A stretch of DNA of 64,000 bases from an uncultured Kiritimatiellota bacterium. Its GTDB lineage: Bacteria; Verrucomicrobiota; Kiritimatiellia; RFP12; DVOR01. A program made the position numbers and the translations under genes. Under the pieces are notes generated by a model. The model was given only the letters and a program-made list of their open reading frames with translations, made no database searches and was not told the origin of the DNA. The stretch is from NCBI GenBank assembly GCA_944389545.1, contig CALXMT010000010.1, positions 1-64,000 on the forward strand. The letters run 5' to 3'. This document shows, in pieces, positions 17,507-59,665 of this stretch. Position 1 is the stretch's first letter, and every line of letters begins with the position of its first letter.

Positions 17507-17970
17507 TTGTCTGGAAGTTTGGAAGTTTGGAAGTTTGGAGGTTTAGAGGTTTGGCAGTTTAGCGGTTTGGAAGCTTGGTTCCCTTGGTGGGGCTCCGCCC
17601 CACACCCCATTACCCTCCGTCGCCCGCTTGCCGGGCGCTCCTGAATCTCCTGCATCTCCTGAATCTCCTGCATCTCCTGTTGGGGCGTCCTCCAGGCACG
17701 TCCGCAGGGCGTGCCTGCGGGTGCAGGGGGTGTTTCCCCCTGCTGGGGCGTGGGGCAGCGCCCCACATTCCAATCAGCTAATCAGCCAATCAGCTAATCA
17801 GCTAATCAGCTAATCAGCTAATCAGCTAATCAGCCAATTTCCCTTTGTGTCCTTTGCGAATCTTTGCGCCTTTGTGGGTGCTCGCGCAGCGTAATCCACT
17901 CTGGCAGTCCTGCGTGCGCTAGCACGCCCCAAATCTGCACGAATCTGCGAAATCTTCGGTCCCTTACACA
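17507..17970. repeat. Repeat-filled gap after the ribosomal cluster
   Basis: No gene is visible. In order: an 8-bp GGAAGTTT array (about 17512-17579), a 9-bp CTCCTGAAT/CTCCTGCAT array (about 17638-17681), hairpin-forming modules, a GGGGCGTGGGGCAGCGCCCC hairpin (17742-17761), an 8-bp AATCAGCT array (about 17772-17837), a CCTTTGTGT 9-bp tract (about 17839-17875) and an AATCTGCGA tract (about 17931-17957). The AATCAGCT array with the same hairpin before it and the same CTTTGTG tract after it recurs at about 27903-27985. Confidence 0.85.
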
Positions 17971-18372: not shown

Positions 18373-18490
18373 TTAAACCCCTCTTCCCAGACCCTTAAGG
18401 GTTTCGGGTCGGACCACTATAGGGTCTCGACCCCGACCCCTATAGAGGTTGACCTCGGACCCTTATAGGGTCTCAGAAAGGGGCCTTAAG
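18373..18490. repeat. 23-bp periodic TATAG/TTAAG palindrome array
   Basis: Core tetramers fall at 18373 (TTAAA), 18395 (TTAAG), 18418, 18441, 18464 (TATAG) and 18486 (TTAAG): spacings of 22, 23, 23, 23 and 22. Each core is the centre of a short palindrome such as GACCCTTATAGGGTC. The array sits between convergent gene ends. The same family occurs at 45168-45290 and 59551-59630. The remainder of 18344-18596 shows nothing else. Confidence 0.8.
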
Positions 18491-41545: not shown

Positions 41546-43369
41546 TTAGAAATCCGTGTTGTCCACGAAGAGGTTGTCGAAGATGTAGCGGCGGCGCTCG
41601 GGGGTGTTCGAGCCCATCAGGAACTGCACGGTGTCCCACACGCGCGTGTCGTTGTGCACGTTCACGGGGGTCAGGCGGATGCCCTCGCCGATGAAGTCCT
41701 TGAACTCCTTGGCGTTGATTTCGCCCAAGCCTTTGAAGCGGGTGATCTCGGCCTTGGCGCCGCAGGCCTTGATGGCGGCCTCGCGCTCGGCGTCGTCGTA
41801 GCAATAGAAACTCTGCTTGGCGTTGCGCACGCGGAAGAGCGGGGTCTCCAGGATGAAGAGGCGGCCATCCTTGATGATGTGGTCGAAGAACCGCAGGAAG
41901 AAGGTGATGAGCAGGTTGCGGATGTGCAGGCCGTCGACATCCGCGTCCGTCGCCAGAATGACCTTGCCGTAGCGCAGGTTGTCCGGCGACTGCTCGATGC
42001 CCAGGCTCTTCACCAGGTCGTAGAACTCCTTGTTCTTGTAGATGGCGTCGCGCCGCTGGTCGCACACGTTGAGGGGCTTGCCGCGGAGCTTGAAGACGGC
42101 CTGCGTCTGGGTGTCGCGCGCGGTGCCCACGGTGCCGCCGGCGGACTTGCCCTCCACCAGGAAGATCATCGTGTCCTCACCCTTGCCCTTGGCCTTGTCC
42201 AGGTGGCGCTTGCAGTCGATCAGCTCCTCCACGCGCACGGCGCTCTGCTTGGCACGCTCGCGGATGGTCTTCTGCAGATCCTTGCTCGCTGCGCGCAGCT
42301 TCGCCGTCTCGTCGATCTTGTCGAGCAGACGCTGCGCCTCCTCGGGGTGACGGTGGAGCTCGTCCTCCACCACCTTCTTGATCTCGGCGACGAGCGCGCC
42401 GCGGATCTCGGGGTTGCCCAGCTTGTTCTTGGTCTGGCTCTCGAAGACGGGGTCCTTCAAGCGGATGGCCACGGCCGCAATGATGCCGTCGCGCGCCACG
42501 TCGCCGTCATAGCGCTTCTTCGAGAACTCCTGCACGCCGCGCAGGAAACCCTCCTTGAAGGCCGTCAAGTGCGTGCCGCCGTCGTTCGTATACTGGCCGT
42601 TGACGAAGGAGTAGTACTCCTCGCCCATGTGGTTGGTGTGCGTGAAGGCCACCTCGAGCATCTTCGAACGGAAGTGGAAGGGCCCATAGAGCTGGCCGCC
42701 GTCGGCCTCCGCCCCGATCAAATCCATCAGGCCGTTCTCAGAACGCACGGGGTCGCCGTTCAGCTCGATCGTCAGCCCCGCGTTCAGATAGGCATACATC
42801 TTCAAGCGCCGCACCACGTGCTCTTCGCGGAAGGCGAACTTCGGAAAGATCTCAATGTCTGGCAGGAAGCCCATGTAGGTCCCGTTCCGCTCCTTCGTCT
42901 CCCCCTCCTTGCGCTCCAACAGTTTCCCCTTCGCGAAGGTCGCCTCCACAAAGCGCCCCTCGCGCGTCGAACGCACCGTGAACCGCTCCGAGAGCGCGTT
43001 CACCGCCTTCGTGCCCACGCCGTTCATGCCCACCGAAAACTGAAACACGTCGTCGTTGTACTTGCCGCCCGTGTTCATCTCGCTCACGCACGCCACGACC
43101 TTTTCCAACGGGATGCCGCGCCCATAGTCGCGCACCGACACCTCGCCCGTCGCGTAATCCAGCTTCACCACGATACGCTTGCCGTAGCCCATGATGAACT
43201 CATCGATGGCGTTGTCCAGCACCTCCTTCAATAGGATATAGATGCCGTCCTCATACTGTGCGCCATCGCCCTTGCGCCCGATGTACATACCCGTGCGCAG
43301 GCGGATATGCTCCATCGGATCAAGGGTCTTGATGCTATCGGCTGTGTATTCGGCTGGGTTCTTCGACAT
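41546..43369 (-). CDS. parE: Type IIA DNA topoisomerase B subunit (ParE-like)
   Basis: ATPase subunit of topoisomerase IV or gyrase. 607 aa, short like ParE and without a gyrase-type insertion. GHKL ATPase motifs: EVLDNAIDEF, RDYGRGIPLEK and VGMNGVGTKAVNALS. TOPRIM: IFLVEGKSAGGT (the usual EGDSAGG has Lys in place of Asp) and ATDADVDGLHIRNLL. ATG 43369 has GAGGAG 5 bases upstream. No A subunit is adjacent. ParE versus GyrB is judged from length and absence of neighbours only. Confidence 0.88.
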   Translation of the reverse strand: MSKNPAEYTADSIKTLDPMEHIRLRTGMYIGRKGDGAQYEDGIYILLKEVLDNAIDEFIMGYGKRIVVKLDYATGEVSVRDYGRGIPLEKVVACVSEMNTGGKYNDDVFQFSVGMNGVGTKAVNALSERFTVRSTREGRFVEATFAKGKLLERKEGETKERNGTYMGFLPDIEIFPKFAFREEHVVRRLKMYAYLNAGLTIELNGDPVRSENGLMDLIGAEADGGQLYGPFHFRSKMLEVAFTHTNHMGEEYYSFVNGQYTNDGGTHLTAFKEGFLRGVQEFSKKRYDGDVARDGIIAAVAIRLKDPVFESQTKNKLGNPEIRGALVAEIKKVVEDELHRHPEEAQRLLDKIDETAKLRAASKDLQKTIRERAKQSAVRVEELIDCKRHLDKAKGKGEDTMIFLVEGKSAGGTVGTARDTQTQAVFKLRGKPLNVCDQRRDAIYKNKEFYDLVKSLGIEQSPDNLRYGKVILATDADVDGLHIRNLLITFFLRFFDHIIKDGRLFILETPLFRVRNAKQSFYCYDDAEREAAIKACGAKAEITRFKGLGEINAKEFKDFIGEGIRLTPVNVHNDTRVWDTVQFLMGSNTPERRRYIFDNLFVDNTDF

Positions 43370-43392
43370 GTCACTCCTCAAAATGTCTCACC

Positions 43393-43762: not shown

Positions 43763-43787
43763 TTAAAGGGGCTTTCTGGACCCTTAT
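43763..43787. repeat. Left remnant of a 23-bp palindrome array split by the IS element
   Basis: TTAAA (43763) and CTTAT (43783-43787) are spaced as in the 18373-18490 array. GGACCCTTAT here joins with AGGGTCTCGG after 45171 to rebuild one intact array palindrome. Confidence 0.6.
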
Positions 43788-44020
43788 CTATTCAGAGATG
43801 GTATTCTAGTGGTGTTTTCTTTGCGTGTGCAAAGGAAGCGTCCCCCGGGGGTGGCCACCCCCGGGGGACGGCGCGGGCGACGAGAACCCTTTGGTCCGTC
43901 ACCTGTTCTGTGGCGAGGCCGTCTTAAGCTCGTTGCCCGCGTTATATTGTTCCATCCGAATAGTTGGTGGGGCTCGATAAGGCCATCGACGCCCGCAGAT
44001 AAGAACGGAGATCAATTATA
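43788..44020 (+). ncRNA. Candidate bridge RNA region of the IS110 element
   Basis: IS110-group elements encode a structured bridge RNA in the left non-coding end. This end contains a 32-bp perfect palindrome (43839-43870, arms of 16) and a GAGAACCCTTTGGTCC segment (43882-43897) sharing ACCCTT with the target half-site GGACCCTTAT. TATTCT at 43802-43807 could be a -10. Structure and guide loops were not computed. Confidence 0.4.
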
Positions 44021-44989
44021 ATGGATTCCGCCGAAAAACGTTGTTATGTAGCCTTCGATGTCTCGAAGGAGACGTTAATGATGGCGGCTCCTAAAGGGTT
44101 GCCGCAGGGTTTATTGAAGAACTCGCCGGATACTGTCGACAAGCGGTTGAAAGCGTTGCTCGATCATGCGAACAAGGTCCATGAGACGCTCTGGTTGGTT
44201 TTCGAGGCCACGGGAGGTTATCAACGGACATTGGAAGCCTGCGCGGCCAAGGCCGGCGTACCTATCAGCGTGGTACCACCCGCATGGATCTTCCATGCCA
44301 AGAAGTCTTGGGGTAAGCTTGCGAAAACTGACCCCTTGGACGCCGCCTGTATCTTGCGCTACGCGCAACAGGAAAAACCAGACGCAACTCCTTATGATCC
44401 TGGGCGTTATGATTTTCAGGAGCTGGTCTCTTCAAAGGATTTGCTTGTCCGAGAGCGTGCCAAATTGAGGCAGCGGAGTCAGACGGTGACGGTTGTTGCC
44501 GCGAAAAAGGCGCTCGCTTGCGCGGAAGCAGCTCTGGATGAACAAATTGCGGCGCTGAATGCCGAAATCGCATCCGTCTTGAACGAACGTGCCAAGACAG
44601 ACGTTCGGATTGAGGCCATTCGCCCACTTGAAGGGGTCGGGCCTGGACTTCTTGCCGTCCTACATGCCTATCTCCCAGAGTTAGGCAAAGTCGGGCGCAA
44701 ACAGATCTCCAGTCTTGCGGGGGTCGTCCCACAAGCCAGGGATAGCGGCAAACTACAAGGGAGACGATATGTTTACGGCGGCAAAAGAGTAGTCCGAACA
44801 GCACTTTATGCGGCATGCATATGTTTTCTTCGTAAGAACTCACCCTATCGTGCACGCTACGACGCCCTGCGTGCTCGAAACAAATCACACCGCACCGTCC
44901 TTATCGCGATGGCCCATGACCTCATCATCCGAATCAACGCTGTCGCCAGACAAGCACTCGAAGAAGCAAAAGGTATCGTCACCGATTAA
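44021..44989 (+). CDS. IS110-family transposase (DEDD recombinase)
   Basis: 322 aa. The RuvC-like N-terminal domain has the acidic set FDVSKETL (Asp), FEATGGY (Glu), and KTDPLDAACILRYAQ (two Asp). The C-terminal Tnp_20-type domain has IRPLEGVGPGLLA and SLAGVVPQARDSGKLQGRR with the conserved Ser near residue 240. Both domains look intact, so the element may still be active. GC content is clearly below that of neighbouring genes. ACGGAG lies about 12 bases before ATG 44021. Confidence 0.93.
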   Translation: MDSAEKRCYVAFDVSKETLMMAAPKGLPQGLLKNSPDTVDKRLKALLDHANKVHETLWLVFEATGGYQRTLEACAAKAGVPISVVPPAWIFHAKKSWGKLAKTDPLDAACILRYAQQEKPDATPYDPGRYDFQELVSSKDLLVRERAKLRQRSQTVTVVAAKKALACAEAALDEQIAALNAEIASVLNERAKTDVRIEAIRPLEGVGPGLLAVLHAYLPELGKVGRKQISSLAGVVPQARDSGKLQGRRYVYGGKRVVRTALYAACICFLRKNSPYRARYDALRARNKSHRTVLIAMAHDLIIRINAVARQALEEAKGIVTD

Positions 44990-45011
44990 ACGCTAAATCT
45001 ATCTCAGTATT

Positions 45012-45043
45012 CCAAAGGCCATTCAATCCGGATGGCCCTTTGG
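45012..45043 (+). terminator. Hairpin after the transposase gene
   Basis: CCAAAGGCCAT (45012-45022) pairs with ATGGCCCTTTGG (45032-45043) with one bulge. The following tract is T-rich but broken, so termination is likely weak. It lies within the IS right end. Confidence 0.4.
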
Positions 45044-45167
45044 TGCTTTCTCTGCTTCTCTCGAAAACCCTCAAAAAGCCCTCCTCCAGCCTCATATCCC
45101 ACCTCTCACATCTTACAATGTTACCTCATCTCAAAAATTTTCGTCTTCCACAAAAAATATAGTTGAC

Positions 45168-45290
45168 TTATAGGGTCTCGGCTCCGACCACTATAGGGGG
45201 CGGCCTTGGACCCTTATAGGGTCTCGCCTCCGACCCCTATAGTGGTTGACCTCGGACCCTTATAGGGTCTCTGGGCGGATCCTATAGGGT
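45168..45290. repeat. 23-bp periodic TATAG palindrome array
   Basis: TATAG occurs at 45170, 45193, 45216, 45239, 45262 and 45284 within about one base: a 23-bp period with a final 22. Units read roughly TATAGGGTCTCGGCTCCGAC. Palindromes such as GACCCTTATAGGGTC and ACCCCTATAGTGGT are centred on the cores. It lies between convergent transcripts and was interrupted by the IS110 element. Confidence 0.85.
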
Positions 45291-45321
45291 TTCACGGAGG
45301 GTCAGGTGGGGTGGGGAAGGC

Positions 45322-45359: not shown

Positions 45360-45447
45360 TGGCGGAGGGGGAGGGATTCGAACCCCCGGAACCTTGCGGC
45401 TCAACGGTTTTCAAGACCGCCGCATTCGACCGCTCTGCCACCCCTCC
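45360..45447 (-). tRNA. tRNA-Ser, anticodon TGA
   Basis: Minus-strand sequence starts GGAGGGGTGGCAGAGCGG and has a 7-bp acceptor stem, an anticodon loop CTTGAAA with TGA (reads UCA), a long variable arm of serine type, GGTTCGAATCC in the T arm, G discriminator and encoded CCA. Its 5' end is only 7 bases after the secDF stop codon, so it must be cut from the secDF transcript unless a promoter lies within secDF. Confidence 0.97.
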
Positions 45448-45454
45448 TGTGGGG

Positions 45455-48403
45455 TCACGGCGCGGTGGTGGCGGCGGCCTTGGCCTGCTCGGCCTTGCGG
45501 TCGGCGGGCATGTTGGGGCGCTTGCCGCGATACCAGGCGACGGTGACCACGGGGGCGATGAAGAGGGTGGAGAAGGTGCCCGCGACCATGCCGACGAAGA
45601 GGGCGAAGGCGAAGTCGTGCATCGCGGCGCCGCCGAAGAAGTAGAGGGCGGCGACGGGCATCAACGTGGAGAGGGTGGTCAGCACGGTGCGGCTGAGGGT
45701 CTGGTTCAGGCCGCGGCGCATGGCGGTGGGGAAGTCCAGCGTGGGCTCGCGCTCCATGATTTCGCGGACGCGGTCGAAGGCGACGATGGTGTCGTTGATC
45801 GAGTAACCGACGATGGTGAGGAGCGCGGCGACGGTGGTGAGGCTCACCTGGTTGCCGCAGAGGGAGTAGACGCCCAGGGTCATGAGCGCATCGTGCGCCA
45901 GGGCCACCACGCCGCCGAGGGCGAAGCCGAACTGGAAGCGGTAGCTGACGTAGAGGATGATGCAGATGAGGGAGGCGATGATGGACCAGACGGCCGCGCT
46001 CTTGAGCTCATCGCCGATCTGGGAGCCGACTTGGTCGCGGCTGATGGAGGCGATGTTGAAGTCGGGCGTGGCGTTGTCGATGATCACGCGGAGGGCCTCT
46101 TCGGCGTCGAGGGCGACCTGCTGGGCGGTGGTGGTGACCGCGAAGGAGAGGTCGCCGTTCTCTGCGGGGGTGACCGTGACCTTGAAGTCGTTCGGGTCGT
46201 TCGGGTCGTCCGGCAGGGAGACGATGGCCTTCTCGCCGCGGAAGGCGGCGACCAGGCGGGCATTGAGGGCGGTGACGTCGGTGGGCTCGCCGGCGAGCTT
46301 CTTGGCGGTGTAGGTGTAGGTGCCGTTCTCGGCCTTGGCGAGGGTGATGGCGTAGCCGGGGAGGATGCCGTGGCCGATGGTGCCGCGGATGACGTCCGCG
46401 ACGGGGAGGGAGACCTGGCCGACGTCAGGAATCTTGACGAGGGTCTGGGTCTTGCCGCCTTCGGCGGTGGCGTTCTGGACGGTGGGGTCGGCGATGCCGG
46501 CATCGTTGATGGCGTCGCGGATGAGGTCGGCGTCGAGGGCGATGACGGAGTCGGGATTGGCCTTTTCGGTGGCTTCGTAGGTGAGGGAGAGGCCGCCGGT
46601 GAAGTCCACGGCCATGACGTCCGCGGGCTTGCTGACGGCGCGGTAGAGGAAGAGGCCGACGGTGGCGACGATGACGGCGAAGGCGGCGATGGTGAGGGGC
46701 TTGCCGAACTTCAGGAAGTCGATGTTGATGGTCTCGGGGACCCACTGGAACATCTTGTAGGGCTTGGTGGTGTCTTGGGCCACCAGGCGGAAGATGAGGC
46801 GGGTGACGACGAGGGCCGTGAACATCGAGATGATGATGCCGCCGCAGAGGGTGACGGCGAAGCCGCGGATCGGGCCGGAGCCGAAGATGAAGAGGATGAC
46901 GCCGGTGATGAGCGTGGTGAGGTTGGAGTCCAGAATCGCCAGGAAGGCGCGGTCGTAGCCGGCGGTGATGGCGGCCTTGACGGTCTTGCCGAGGCGGAAC
47001 TCCTCACGCATACGCTCGAAGATCAGCACGTTGGCGTCCACGGCCATGCCCACGGAGAGGACGAGGCCCGCGATGCCCGGGAGGGTGAGGACGGGGAGCT
47101 GATTGATGCTGCCGGTGCTCTCGGCGCCGCTGGGATAGACGGCGTTGAGGACGCCGGCGGCGATGACCATGCCCGCGGGCCAGAGGATGACGTTGAGGGC
47201 GAGGGCAACGTCGGCGATGACGCCGCAGAAGAGGTAGTAGAAGAGCATGAAGAGGAAGACCGCGGCCACGCCGATGATGGCCGAGAGGGTGCCCTTCTGG
47301 ATGGCTTCCTCGCCGAGGGTCGGGGAGACGGAGCGAGTCTCCATGATCTTGATGGGGACGTTGAGGGCGCCCGCGTTGAAGACGCCCGCGAGGCGGGTGG
47401 CCTCGGCCCAAGAGAAGTCGCCGGAGATCTGGCAGTGGCCGCCGGTGATGGGCTCACGCAGGACAGGGGCGGAGCGGACGATGTCGTCCAGGACAATGGC
47501 CATCTGCTCGCCGGTGTGGCCGGAGGAGAGCTGGGCGAGCTTGTCGGAGCCTTCGCCGTTGAACTCCACGTTGATGACGTTGCCGCCCTTCATGGAGTCC
47601 TTGTCGGCGGTGGCCTTGACCACGGTGTCGCCGGTGATGGTGGTGGAGGCGGCACGGGAGAGGTACATCGGGCGATAAGCGTCGCGGCCGGAGCCATCGT
47701 CAGCCACGCCAACGTATTCCAGGACGCACTCGAAGAGGGCGCTGGGGGAGCCGAAGCGGGCGAGCTGGGAGGGGATGGTGGGGTCCTCGGCCAGCAGGTC
47801 CAAGTAGTTCGGAAGCTGGACAAGGGCGGGGGTGCCGCCGCAGGTCTTGCGCTCATAGCCCTTCGGGGGGCGGGTGTTGGCCATCTCCATGGCCTTCTGG
47901 GCGAGCTGCGTGTTCTCGCGGGCAACGAGGCGGAGCTCCAGGAAGGAGGCCTTGCCGACGCTGGCACGCGCGGCGTCGCGCTGCTCATCGGTGGCGCCGG
48001 GGATCTGAATGGAGAAGCGGTGGTCGCCGATGGAGGTGATGACGGGCTCGTTGGTGCCGAGGGCGTCGATACGGCGGCGGAGCACCTCGAGGACGGTCTC
48101 GTCGGCGCCGCGCAGATCCGCGGCCACCTTGGCGGAGGCCTGGGTGTTGAGCGCGTCGCGGCGGCTCTGGTCCACCTTGGAGAGGTCGGTGATTTTCTCC
48201 TTCGCGCTGATTTCGTCGAGGGCGTCGGCCTTGAGCTGCTCTTGGTCGATGGCGACGGTGAAGCTGGTGCCGCCCTGCAGGTCAAGGCCCAAGCGCACCT
48301 TGTCCTTCATCGGGAAGGTGACATAGCACGAGAAGGCGACCAGAACGGCCAAAATCGCCCACTTGATCAAGCTGGGCGTATCCATGTCCTTGAAGTTCAA
48401 CAT
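45455..48403 (-). CDS. secDF: Fused protein translocase subunit SecDF
   Basis: Inner-membrane proton-driven accessory of SecYEG. 982 aa, so secD and secF are one chain. The SecD half has VRLGLDLQGGTSF near residues 36-48 and the GMAVDANVLIFERMREE helix; the SecF half starts near residue 570 with NIDFLKFGKP and has AVDFTGGLSLTYE and VGYSINDTIVAFDRVREIME. About twelve membrane segments. The start lies 15 bases after the yajC stop. The tRNA-Ser gene begins 7 bases beyond its stop. Confidence 0.96.
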   Translation of the reverse strand: MLNFKDMDTPSLIKWAILAVLVAFSCYVTFPMKDKVRLGLDLQGGTSFTVAIDQEQLKADALDEISAKEKITDLSKVDQSRRDALNTQASAKVAADLRGADETVLEVLRRRIDALGTNEPVITSIGDHRFSIQIPGATDEQRDAARASVGKASFLELRLVARENTQLAQKAMEMANTRPPKGYERKTCGGTPALVQLPNYLDLLAEDPTIPSQLARFGSPSALFECVLEYVGVADDGSGRDAYRPMYLSRAASTTITGDTVVKATADKDSMKGGNVINVEFNGEGSDKLAQLSSGHTGEQMAIVLDDIVRSAPVLREPITGGHCQISGDFSWAEATRLAGVFNAGALNVPIKIMETRSVSPTLGEEAIQKGTLSAIIGVAAVFLFMLFYYLFCGVIADVALALNVILWPAGMVIAAGVLNAVYPSGAESTGSINQLPVLTLPGIAGLVLSVGMAVDANVLIFERMREEFRLGKTVKAAITAGYDRAFLAILDSNLTTLITGVILFIFGSGPIRGFAVTLCGGIIISMFTALVVTRLIFRLVAQDTTKPYKMFQWVPETINIDFLKFGKPLTIAAFAVIVATVGLFLYRAVSKPADVMAVDFTGGLSLTYEATEKANPDSVIALDADLIRDAINDAGIADPTVQNATAEGGKTQTLVKIPDVGQVSLPVADVIRGTIGHGILPGYAITLAKAENGTYTYTAKKLAGEPTDVTALNARLVAAFRGEKAIVSLPDDPNDPNDFKVTVTPAENGDLSFAVTTTAQQVALDAEEALRVIIDNATPDFNIASISRDQVGSQIGDELKSAAVWSIIASLICIILYVSYRFQFGFALGGVVALAHDALMTLGVYSLCGNQVSLTTVAALLTIVGYSINDTIVAFDRVREIMEREPTLDFPTAMRRGLNQTLSRTVLTTLSTLMPVAALYFFGGAAMHDFAFALFVGMVAGTFSTLFIAPVVTVAWYRGKRPNMPADRKAEQAKAAATTAP

Positions 48404-59473: not shown

Positions 59474-59550
59474 CGGGTTTTCTTTCTTTGGAGGTTCGGG
59501 TGGAGGGCGGCGGAAGGTCCTTTCGCCCCTGTCCACCCCTTCATAACTGA

Positions 59551-59630
59551 CCCTATAGTGGTCCGAGGTCAACCACTATAGTGGTCGGAGGTGAGACCCT
59601 ATAGTGGTCCGTGCGCGACCCTTATAGGGT
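59551..59630. repeat. 23-bp periodic TATAG palindrome array
   Basis: TATAG cores at 59554, 59577, 59600 and 59623, exactly 23 apart. Includes the perfect palindrome ACCACTATAGTGGT and CCCTTATAGGGTT. Lies between two co-directional pilin genes, so it would be transcribed within the operon. Confidence 0.85.
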
Positions 59631-59665
59631 TCCCGGAGCCCCCCGCAGGGGGCCCTGGCGGGAGA

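What the first reader, a model, noticed from the sequence alone, without database searches (positions are those of the whole stretch)
43763..45290. IS110-type element inserted into the centre of a periodic palindrome array
Left flank GGACCCTTAT (43778-43787) and right flank AGGGTCTCGG (from 45172) join to make GACCCTTATAGGGTC, exactly the unit of the 23-bp arrays. CTTAT is present at both junctions. This defines both ends of the element (about 1384 bp) and a palindromic target. IS110 elements are known to favour repeated palindromes such as REP sites, so these arrays may be the native target of this element.
Basis: partly seen in the sequence, partly recalled or inferred. Interest (0 to 1): 0.75.

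Follow-up and report, generated by a model that had tools for sequence, protein, structure and literature searches.

The report
RNA-guided IS110 element in palindrome array
A small jumping gene that very probably chooses its landing site with its own guide RNA sits inside one of the many dispersed palindrome arrays of an uncultured bacterium, and relatives of the element in sister species occupy the same kind of array, so this is a clear new example of a known kind.

Summary
A complete 1384-bp IS110-group element lies between CT cores at 43783-43784 and 45167-45168. Joining its flanks gives GGACCCTTATAGGGTC, a palindrome found intact 49 times in this genome. The hit is mid-palindrome, but that palindrome is the first of about six, not the array's centre. 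"CTTAT" is not a target duplication: copies in other sites share only CT.

The transposase keeps the IS621 catalytic residues, and the left end folds like a bridge RNA. Its donor guides match the element's ends. Its target guides spell AACC-CT-TAAG, exactly the sites of near-identical copies in sister genome G003 (4 of 4 right ends, 2 of 2 left ends). A relative in G015 hits the same kind of palindrome in at least 12 of 14 right ends. So the arrays are the native target, as proposed. This copy's own site fits less well (3 mismatches), although exact sites are free in the genome. Sibling elements here share the 13-bp donor end but use two other repeat families.

IS110 insertion into REP-like palindromes through a bridge RNA is known: new member of a known kind. 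No empty allele was found, and only one full guide RNA could be read.

The parts
43783..45168 (+). Whole IS110-group element including both CT cores (1384 bp counted with one core)
   Evidence: junctions and copies elsewhere
43778..43784 (+). Left half of the target palindrome, GGACC-CT
   Evidence: intact unit 49 times in the genome
45167..45177 (+). Right half of the target palindrome, CT-TATAGGGTC
43783..43788 (+). Right donor (CTTATC) at the left end
   Evidence: matches GATAAG guide
43802..43807 (+). Predicted -10 box TATTCT, 17 bp from TTGACT once the ends are joined in a circle
   Evidence: spacing kept in G015
43839..43870 (+). 5' stem-loop of the predicted bridge RNA
   Evidence: fold
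43871..43942 (+). Target-binding hairpin of the predicted bridge RNA
   Evidence: fold
43885..43891 (+). Left target guide AACCCUU
   Evidence: matches G003 sites 7/7, window site 6/7
43921..43928 (+). Right target guide GUCUUAAG
   Evidence: matches G003 sites CTTAAG plus one G-U; window site CTTA only, plus one G-U
43960..43967 (+). Left donor guide AUAGUUGG
   Evidence: matches right-end ATAGTTGA with one wobble
43976..43981 (+). Right donor guide GAUAAG
   Evidence: reverse complement of left-end CTTATC
44021..44989 (+). IS110 recombinase, 322 aa; D13, E62, D104, D107, S242
45156..45168 (+). Conserved right end AATATAGTTGACT: left donor, core and -35 box TTGACT (45163-45168)
   Evidence: identical in six lineages
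45188..45291 (.). Rest of the palindrome array, five units

Best explanation
This is a complete, probably functional IS110-group insertion sequence that works like IS621. Shown by sequence: a 322-aa DEDD recombinase, both ends, the CT core, and a left-end RNA whose loops match the lineage's target and the element's donor ends. Inferred from the IS621 work: the element excises as a circle, the joined ends form a sigma-70 promoter (TTGACT-17 bp-TATTCT), and that promoter makes a bridge RNA. The recombinase then uses the target loop (AACC-CT-TAAG) to find a palindromic array unit and the donor loop to hold its own ends. It recombines at CT without duplicating the target. Because the target is a palindrome dispersed across the genome, the element has many intergenic landing sites. 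The copy in this window landed on a related array unit with three mismatches to its guides.
For: Family: Pfam and NCBIfam above cut-off; IS621 recombinase 8wt6 at 1.6e-13, with D13, E62, D104, D107, S242 in place of IS621 D11, E60, D102, D105, S241. RNA: 5' stem-loop, target hairpin and donor region, -100 kcal/mol, z = -6.8. Exact paired guides for the donor and for the G003 target each occur in 0 of 20,000 shuffles of the RNA. Targets: G003 4/4 right ends CT-TAAGGGT and 2/2 left ends AAACC-CT; G015 12/14 right ends with CTTAGGGTTT, CTTAGGGGTT or CTTAAGGGTT, one more CTTAGGCTTT, and 9/9 left ends RACCC-CT; G008 1/1. An intact neighbouring unit lies one repeat away from the junction in both G003 left flanks, 4 of 9 G015 left flanks, 3 of 14 G015 right flanks, the G008 flank and the window; none occur in 21.8 kb further out. 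The 17-bp promoter spacing is kept in the diverged G015 ends.
Against: The window site itself fits the guides poorly: mismatches at -4, +3 and +4, a score reached by about 5% of all CT sites in the window. Exact AACCCTTAAG sites are common and free in this genome (42 strand hits), one of them in this window at 18394. Only one full-length element with its RNA could be read, so guide-target covariation across copies could not be tested. RNA expression and activity are unproven.
Confidence: 0.9

Rival explanations
1. The mismatched site in the window was chosen by another sibling's bridge RNA acting in trans. Sibling elements in this genome have the same donor end, so a different target loop could have delivered this copy to a CCCTTATAGGG unit.
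For: Types B and C in the same genome share the last 13 bp of the right end, and type C the first 60 bp of the left end; the guides fit this site poorly.
Against: No sibling guide for TATAGGG is known and no other right end in the genome is followed by TATAGGG.
Confidence: 0.1
2. The target guides of this copy, or the target, changed after insertion, so the match was once perfect.
For: Mismatch here against an exact match in G003.
Against: The two target halves join to a unit identical to 49 intact units, so the target has not decayed; the guides still match the G003 sites exactly, so they have not drifted from their lineage.
Confidence: 0.05
3. The element recognises the palindrome through the protein or a DNA hairpin rather than through a guide RNA.
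For: All array sites are palindromes; the window site is palindromic but poorly matched to the guides.
Against: Siblings with the same donor end sit in non-palindromic repeats; guide sequences are present in the left end; IS621 uses an RNA (PMC11208160).
Confidence: 0.04
4. The target association is an assembly artefact: repeated flanks joined to repeated elements.
For: Most copies are seen only at contig ends and the genomes are MAGs.
Against: The window copy is assembled through both junctions in a 74.7-kb contig; the same flank type recurs in four genomes with unique sequence beyond it.
Confidence: 0.02

Closest known systems
IS621 (E. coli, IS110 group; PMC11208160, PMC11208158)
   Same: DEDD/Tnp20 recombinase with the same catalytic residues, long left end with 5' stem-loop, target loop and donor loop, CT core, promoter formed at the circle junction, target in dispersed extragenic palindromes
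   Different: Only remote protein similarity (phmmer E 1.6e-13); the target guides look more symmetric (about 4 left and 4-5 right non-core positions, where IS621 has 7 and 2); the host repeats are regular 23-bp arrays, whose relation to E. coli REP was not tested
REP-targeting insertion sequences such as ISPpu9, ISPpu10, ISPa11, ISPsy8 (PMC1525189)
   Same: Specific insertion into dispersed extragenic palindromes
   Different: Different hosts and repeats; their guide RNAs were unknown in that study
ISEc21 / ISMch6 (PMC11187229)
   Same: Upstream non-coding region gives the guide RNA, no target duplication, natural redirection between relatives
   Different: ISEc21 targets a conserved site in IS3-family genes; here the targets are dispersed intergenic repeats, and lineages with the same donor end use three repeat families within one genome

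Membership tests
IS110 family, IS110 group | Transposase with DEDD (PF01548) and Transposase_20 (PF02371) domains | tested here: met
   both above gathering score; NF033542 above cut-off
IS110 family, IS110 group | Catalytic D, E, D, D and Ser-Gly | tested here: met
   D13, E62, D104, D107, S242-G243 against IS621 D11, E60, D102, D105, S241-G242
IS110 family, IS110 group | Left non-coding end longer than right, holding the bridge RNA | tested here: met
   LE 236 bp, RE about 178 bp; RNA fold in LE
IS110 family, IS110 group | Bridge RNA with separate target and donor guides | tested here: met
   donor guides and guides for the lineage target both present, 0 of 20,000 shuffles each; one sequence only, no covariation test
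IS110 family, IS110 group | Guides match the copy's own target with 0-2 mismatches | tested here: inconclusive
   3 mismatches at the window site; at the G003 sites all guide positions from -4 to +4 match and +5 is a G-U
IS110 family, IS110 group | Core dinucleotide, no target duplication | tested here: met
   only CT is shared by both junctions across copies
IS110 family, IS110 group | Promoter formed in the circular form and RNA expressed | not testable with these tools
   TTGACT-17-TATTCT predicted by joining the ends; expression needs RNA data
IS1111 group | Guide RNA in the right end | tested here: not met
   predicted guide RNA with matching guides is in the left end
IS1111 group | Sub-terminal inverted repeats of 7-17 bp | not tested
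   not searched for
REP/BIME-like repeats (the target arrays) | Many dispersed palindromes in regular spacing, more than 100 per genome | tested here: met
   about 50 array places and 190 strand hits of one unit type in G000
REP/BIME-like repeats (the target arrays) | Associated RAYT transposase | not tested

The most novel reading that the evidence does not exclude
Several IS110 lineages in one genome share interchangeable donor ends but carry different target guides, each aimed at a different dispersed repeat family. They could act as a network in which one sibling's bridge RNA sends another's DNA to a new class of sites, which would explain the guide-mismatched copy here.
Probability: 0.1. 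Interest if true: 0.65.

Novelty: new member of a known kind. Interest (0 to 1): 0.42.

Why it matters
It extends bridge-RNA-type targeting of extragenic palindromes to an uncultured bacterial genus related to Kiritimatiellota and shows element lineages following palindrome variants from species to species. The same 13-bp donor end paired with three different dispersed targets in one genome is a natural retargeting experiment: the donor side stays fixed while the target side changes. It also points to a compact, naturally occurring bridge recombinase with a palindromic target.

Tried and rejected
Target site duplication CTTAT: rejected, other copies share only CT. Insertion at the centre of the array: rejected, it is the first unit. 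Orthologous empty allele in 16 congeners: not found; only G003 keeps an array beside tRNA-Ser among those whose flank could be read, and its outer flank differs. Full-length close relatives: none in 346 genomes of the class beyond a 3' fragment in G015, none in viral contigs; pattern hits in viral contigs were unrelated. The genome-contig scan found only that same fragment, in an uncultured Kiritimatiellaeota MAG. Rfam has no bridge RNA hit here. IS110 proteins at 27-33% identity in other genomes and the second IS110 on G000 C20 were not worked out for ends. No held paper joins Kiritimatiellota and IS110.

Full report
What is there. The window lies on contig C10 of a 2.53-Mb, 61-contig genome. 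The only named record found with the same element, a 3' fragment, is an uncultured Kiritimatiellaeota MAG. Between a gyrB/parE-like gene (41546-43381, minus) and tRNA-Ser plus secDF (45360-48403, minus) stands a 1384-bp element. Its 322-aa protein has both IS110 domains, passes the NCBIfam IS110 cut-off and matches the solved IS621 and ISCro4 recombinases. The catalytic residues named for IS621 (PMC11208158) are in place: D13, E62, D104, D107 and S242.

Ends and core. The left junction is GGACC-CT-TATCTATTC and the right junction ATAGTTGA-CT-TATAGGGTC. Five bases are shared here, but copies elsewhere settle the core. Type C copies in this genome have GCGCAAT-CT|TATC on the left and GACT|GCGG on the right, sharing only CT. 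The last 13 bases of the right end, AATATAGTTGACT, are identical in six lineages whose further sequence has diverged. Joining the ends as in a circle gives TTGACT, 17 bp, TATTCT; the diverged G015 ends give TTGACT, 17 bp, TATTAT. A promoter at the circle junction is described for IS621 (PMC11208160); here it is inferred.

Guide RNA. The left end folds into a 5' stem-loop and two further structured regions, z = -6.8, in the IS621 order. The second has an internal loop with AACCCUU on its 5' side and (G)UCUUAAG on its 3' side. By the IS621 rules these predict the target AACC-CT-TAAG, with a G-U possible at the next position. The third region has AUAGUUGG and GAUAAG, which match the right end (ATAGTTGA) and the left end (CTTATC). 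Exact guide pairs in the right order occur in none of 20,000 shuffles, for target or for donor.

The target family. About 50 places in the genome match the array, and there are 49 intact GGACCCTTATAGGGTC units. Units are spaced about 23 bp. In many arrays an outermost unit is AACCCTTAAGGGTY, while inner units are CCCTATAGTGG-like. The window element is in the first unit of its array. Other arrays start after similar sequence, such as CCTAAAGGGGCCTTTTTGG in L003, which fits an array edge.

Other copies. Because repeated copies collapse in assembly, they appear at contig ends. G003 has four right ends, all followed by CT-TAAGGGT, and two left ends preceded by GAAACC-CT with three intact units upstream. 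Its ends are 70/70 and 68/69 identical to the window's. G015 has fourteen right ends: ten CTTAGGGTTT, one CTTAGGGGTT, one CTTAAGGGTT, one CTTAGGCTTT and one CTTAGAAGC. It also has nine left ends at RACCC-CT. G008 has one right end, CTTAAGGGTTTG, followed by two further units. So the lineage targets the palindromes, and the guide of the window copy spells the G003 site exactly.

The odd fit. Scored against the window element's guides, the G003 site reaches 14 of 15. Only 1 of 6,585 CT sites in the window does as well, and that one is the unoccupied array unit at 18394. The element's own site scores 11, reached by 5% of CT sites. Exact sites are plentiful. The insertion is best read as an imperfect hit within the preferred repeat family, or as delivery by a sibling's RNA. 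The data cannot decide between these.

Siblings. The other ten right ends in this genome carry the same 13-bp donor end. Six (type B) sit at CT-GCATCTYCTG, the sequence of a 9-bp CTCCTGAAT/CTCCTGCAT repeat with an empty example at 17638-17679. Four (type C) sit at CT-GCGGT. The three remaining left ends (C21, C43, C44) are at GCGCAAT-CT. That the type C left and right flanks belong together is inferred from a similar uninterrupted stretch in G003 locus L126. The target loops of B and C are not assembled, so their guides are unknown.

Standing. Bridge-RNA-guided IS110 insertion into extragenic palindromes is established for IS621 (PMC11208160), and REP targeting for several IS (PMC1525189). This is a well-supported new member with two points of interest: palindrome preference that differs by species, and shared donor ends with different targets in one genome.

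Noticed in passing
G000 contig ends C12, C17, C34, C47, C48, C56 (type B) and C12, C13, C27, C49 (type C); loci L040, L044, L047, L049-L054, L073: Sibling IS110 lineages with the same last 13 bp but different right ends and two other repeat families as targets; their insides are missing from the assembly, so contigs break at each copy.
   Followed up: partly
window 18391-18472, 45188-45291, 59549-59631: Palindrome arrays with 22-24 bp spacing, often with AACCCTTAAGGGTY at an edge and CCCTATAGTGG-like units inside. What the arrays do is unknown.
   Followed up: partly
window 17638-17679: Tandem 9-bp repeat CTCCTGAAT/CTCCTGCAT, an empty form of the type B target.
   Followed up: partly
window 17772-17838 and 17512-17578: Tandem 8-bp repeats AATCAGCT and TGGAAGTT.
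   Followed up: no
window 43839-43870: 32-bp palindrome at the start of the guide RNA; several contigs of this and sister genomes end at it.
   Followed up: no
G000:C20:31938-32915 (L024): A second, distant IS110-family gene (33% identity) in the same genome; ends and target not determined.
   Followed up: no
window 44021-44986: The recombinase shows a match below cut-off to the TIGR-Tas endonuclease model (E 7e-7, 29 bits against a cut-off of 100).
   Followed up: no
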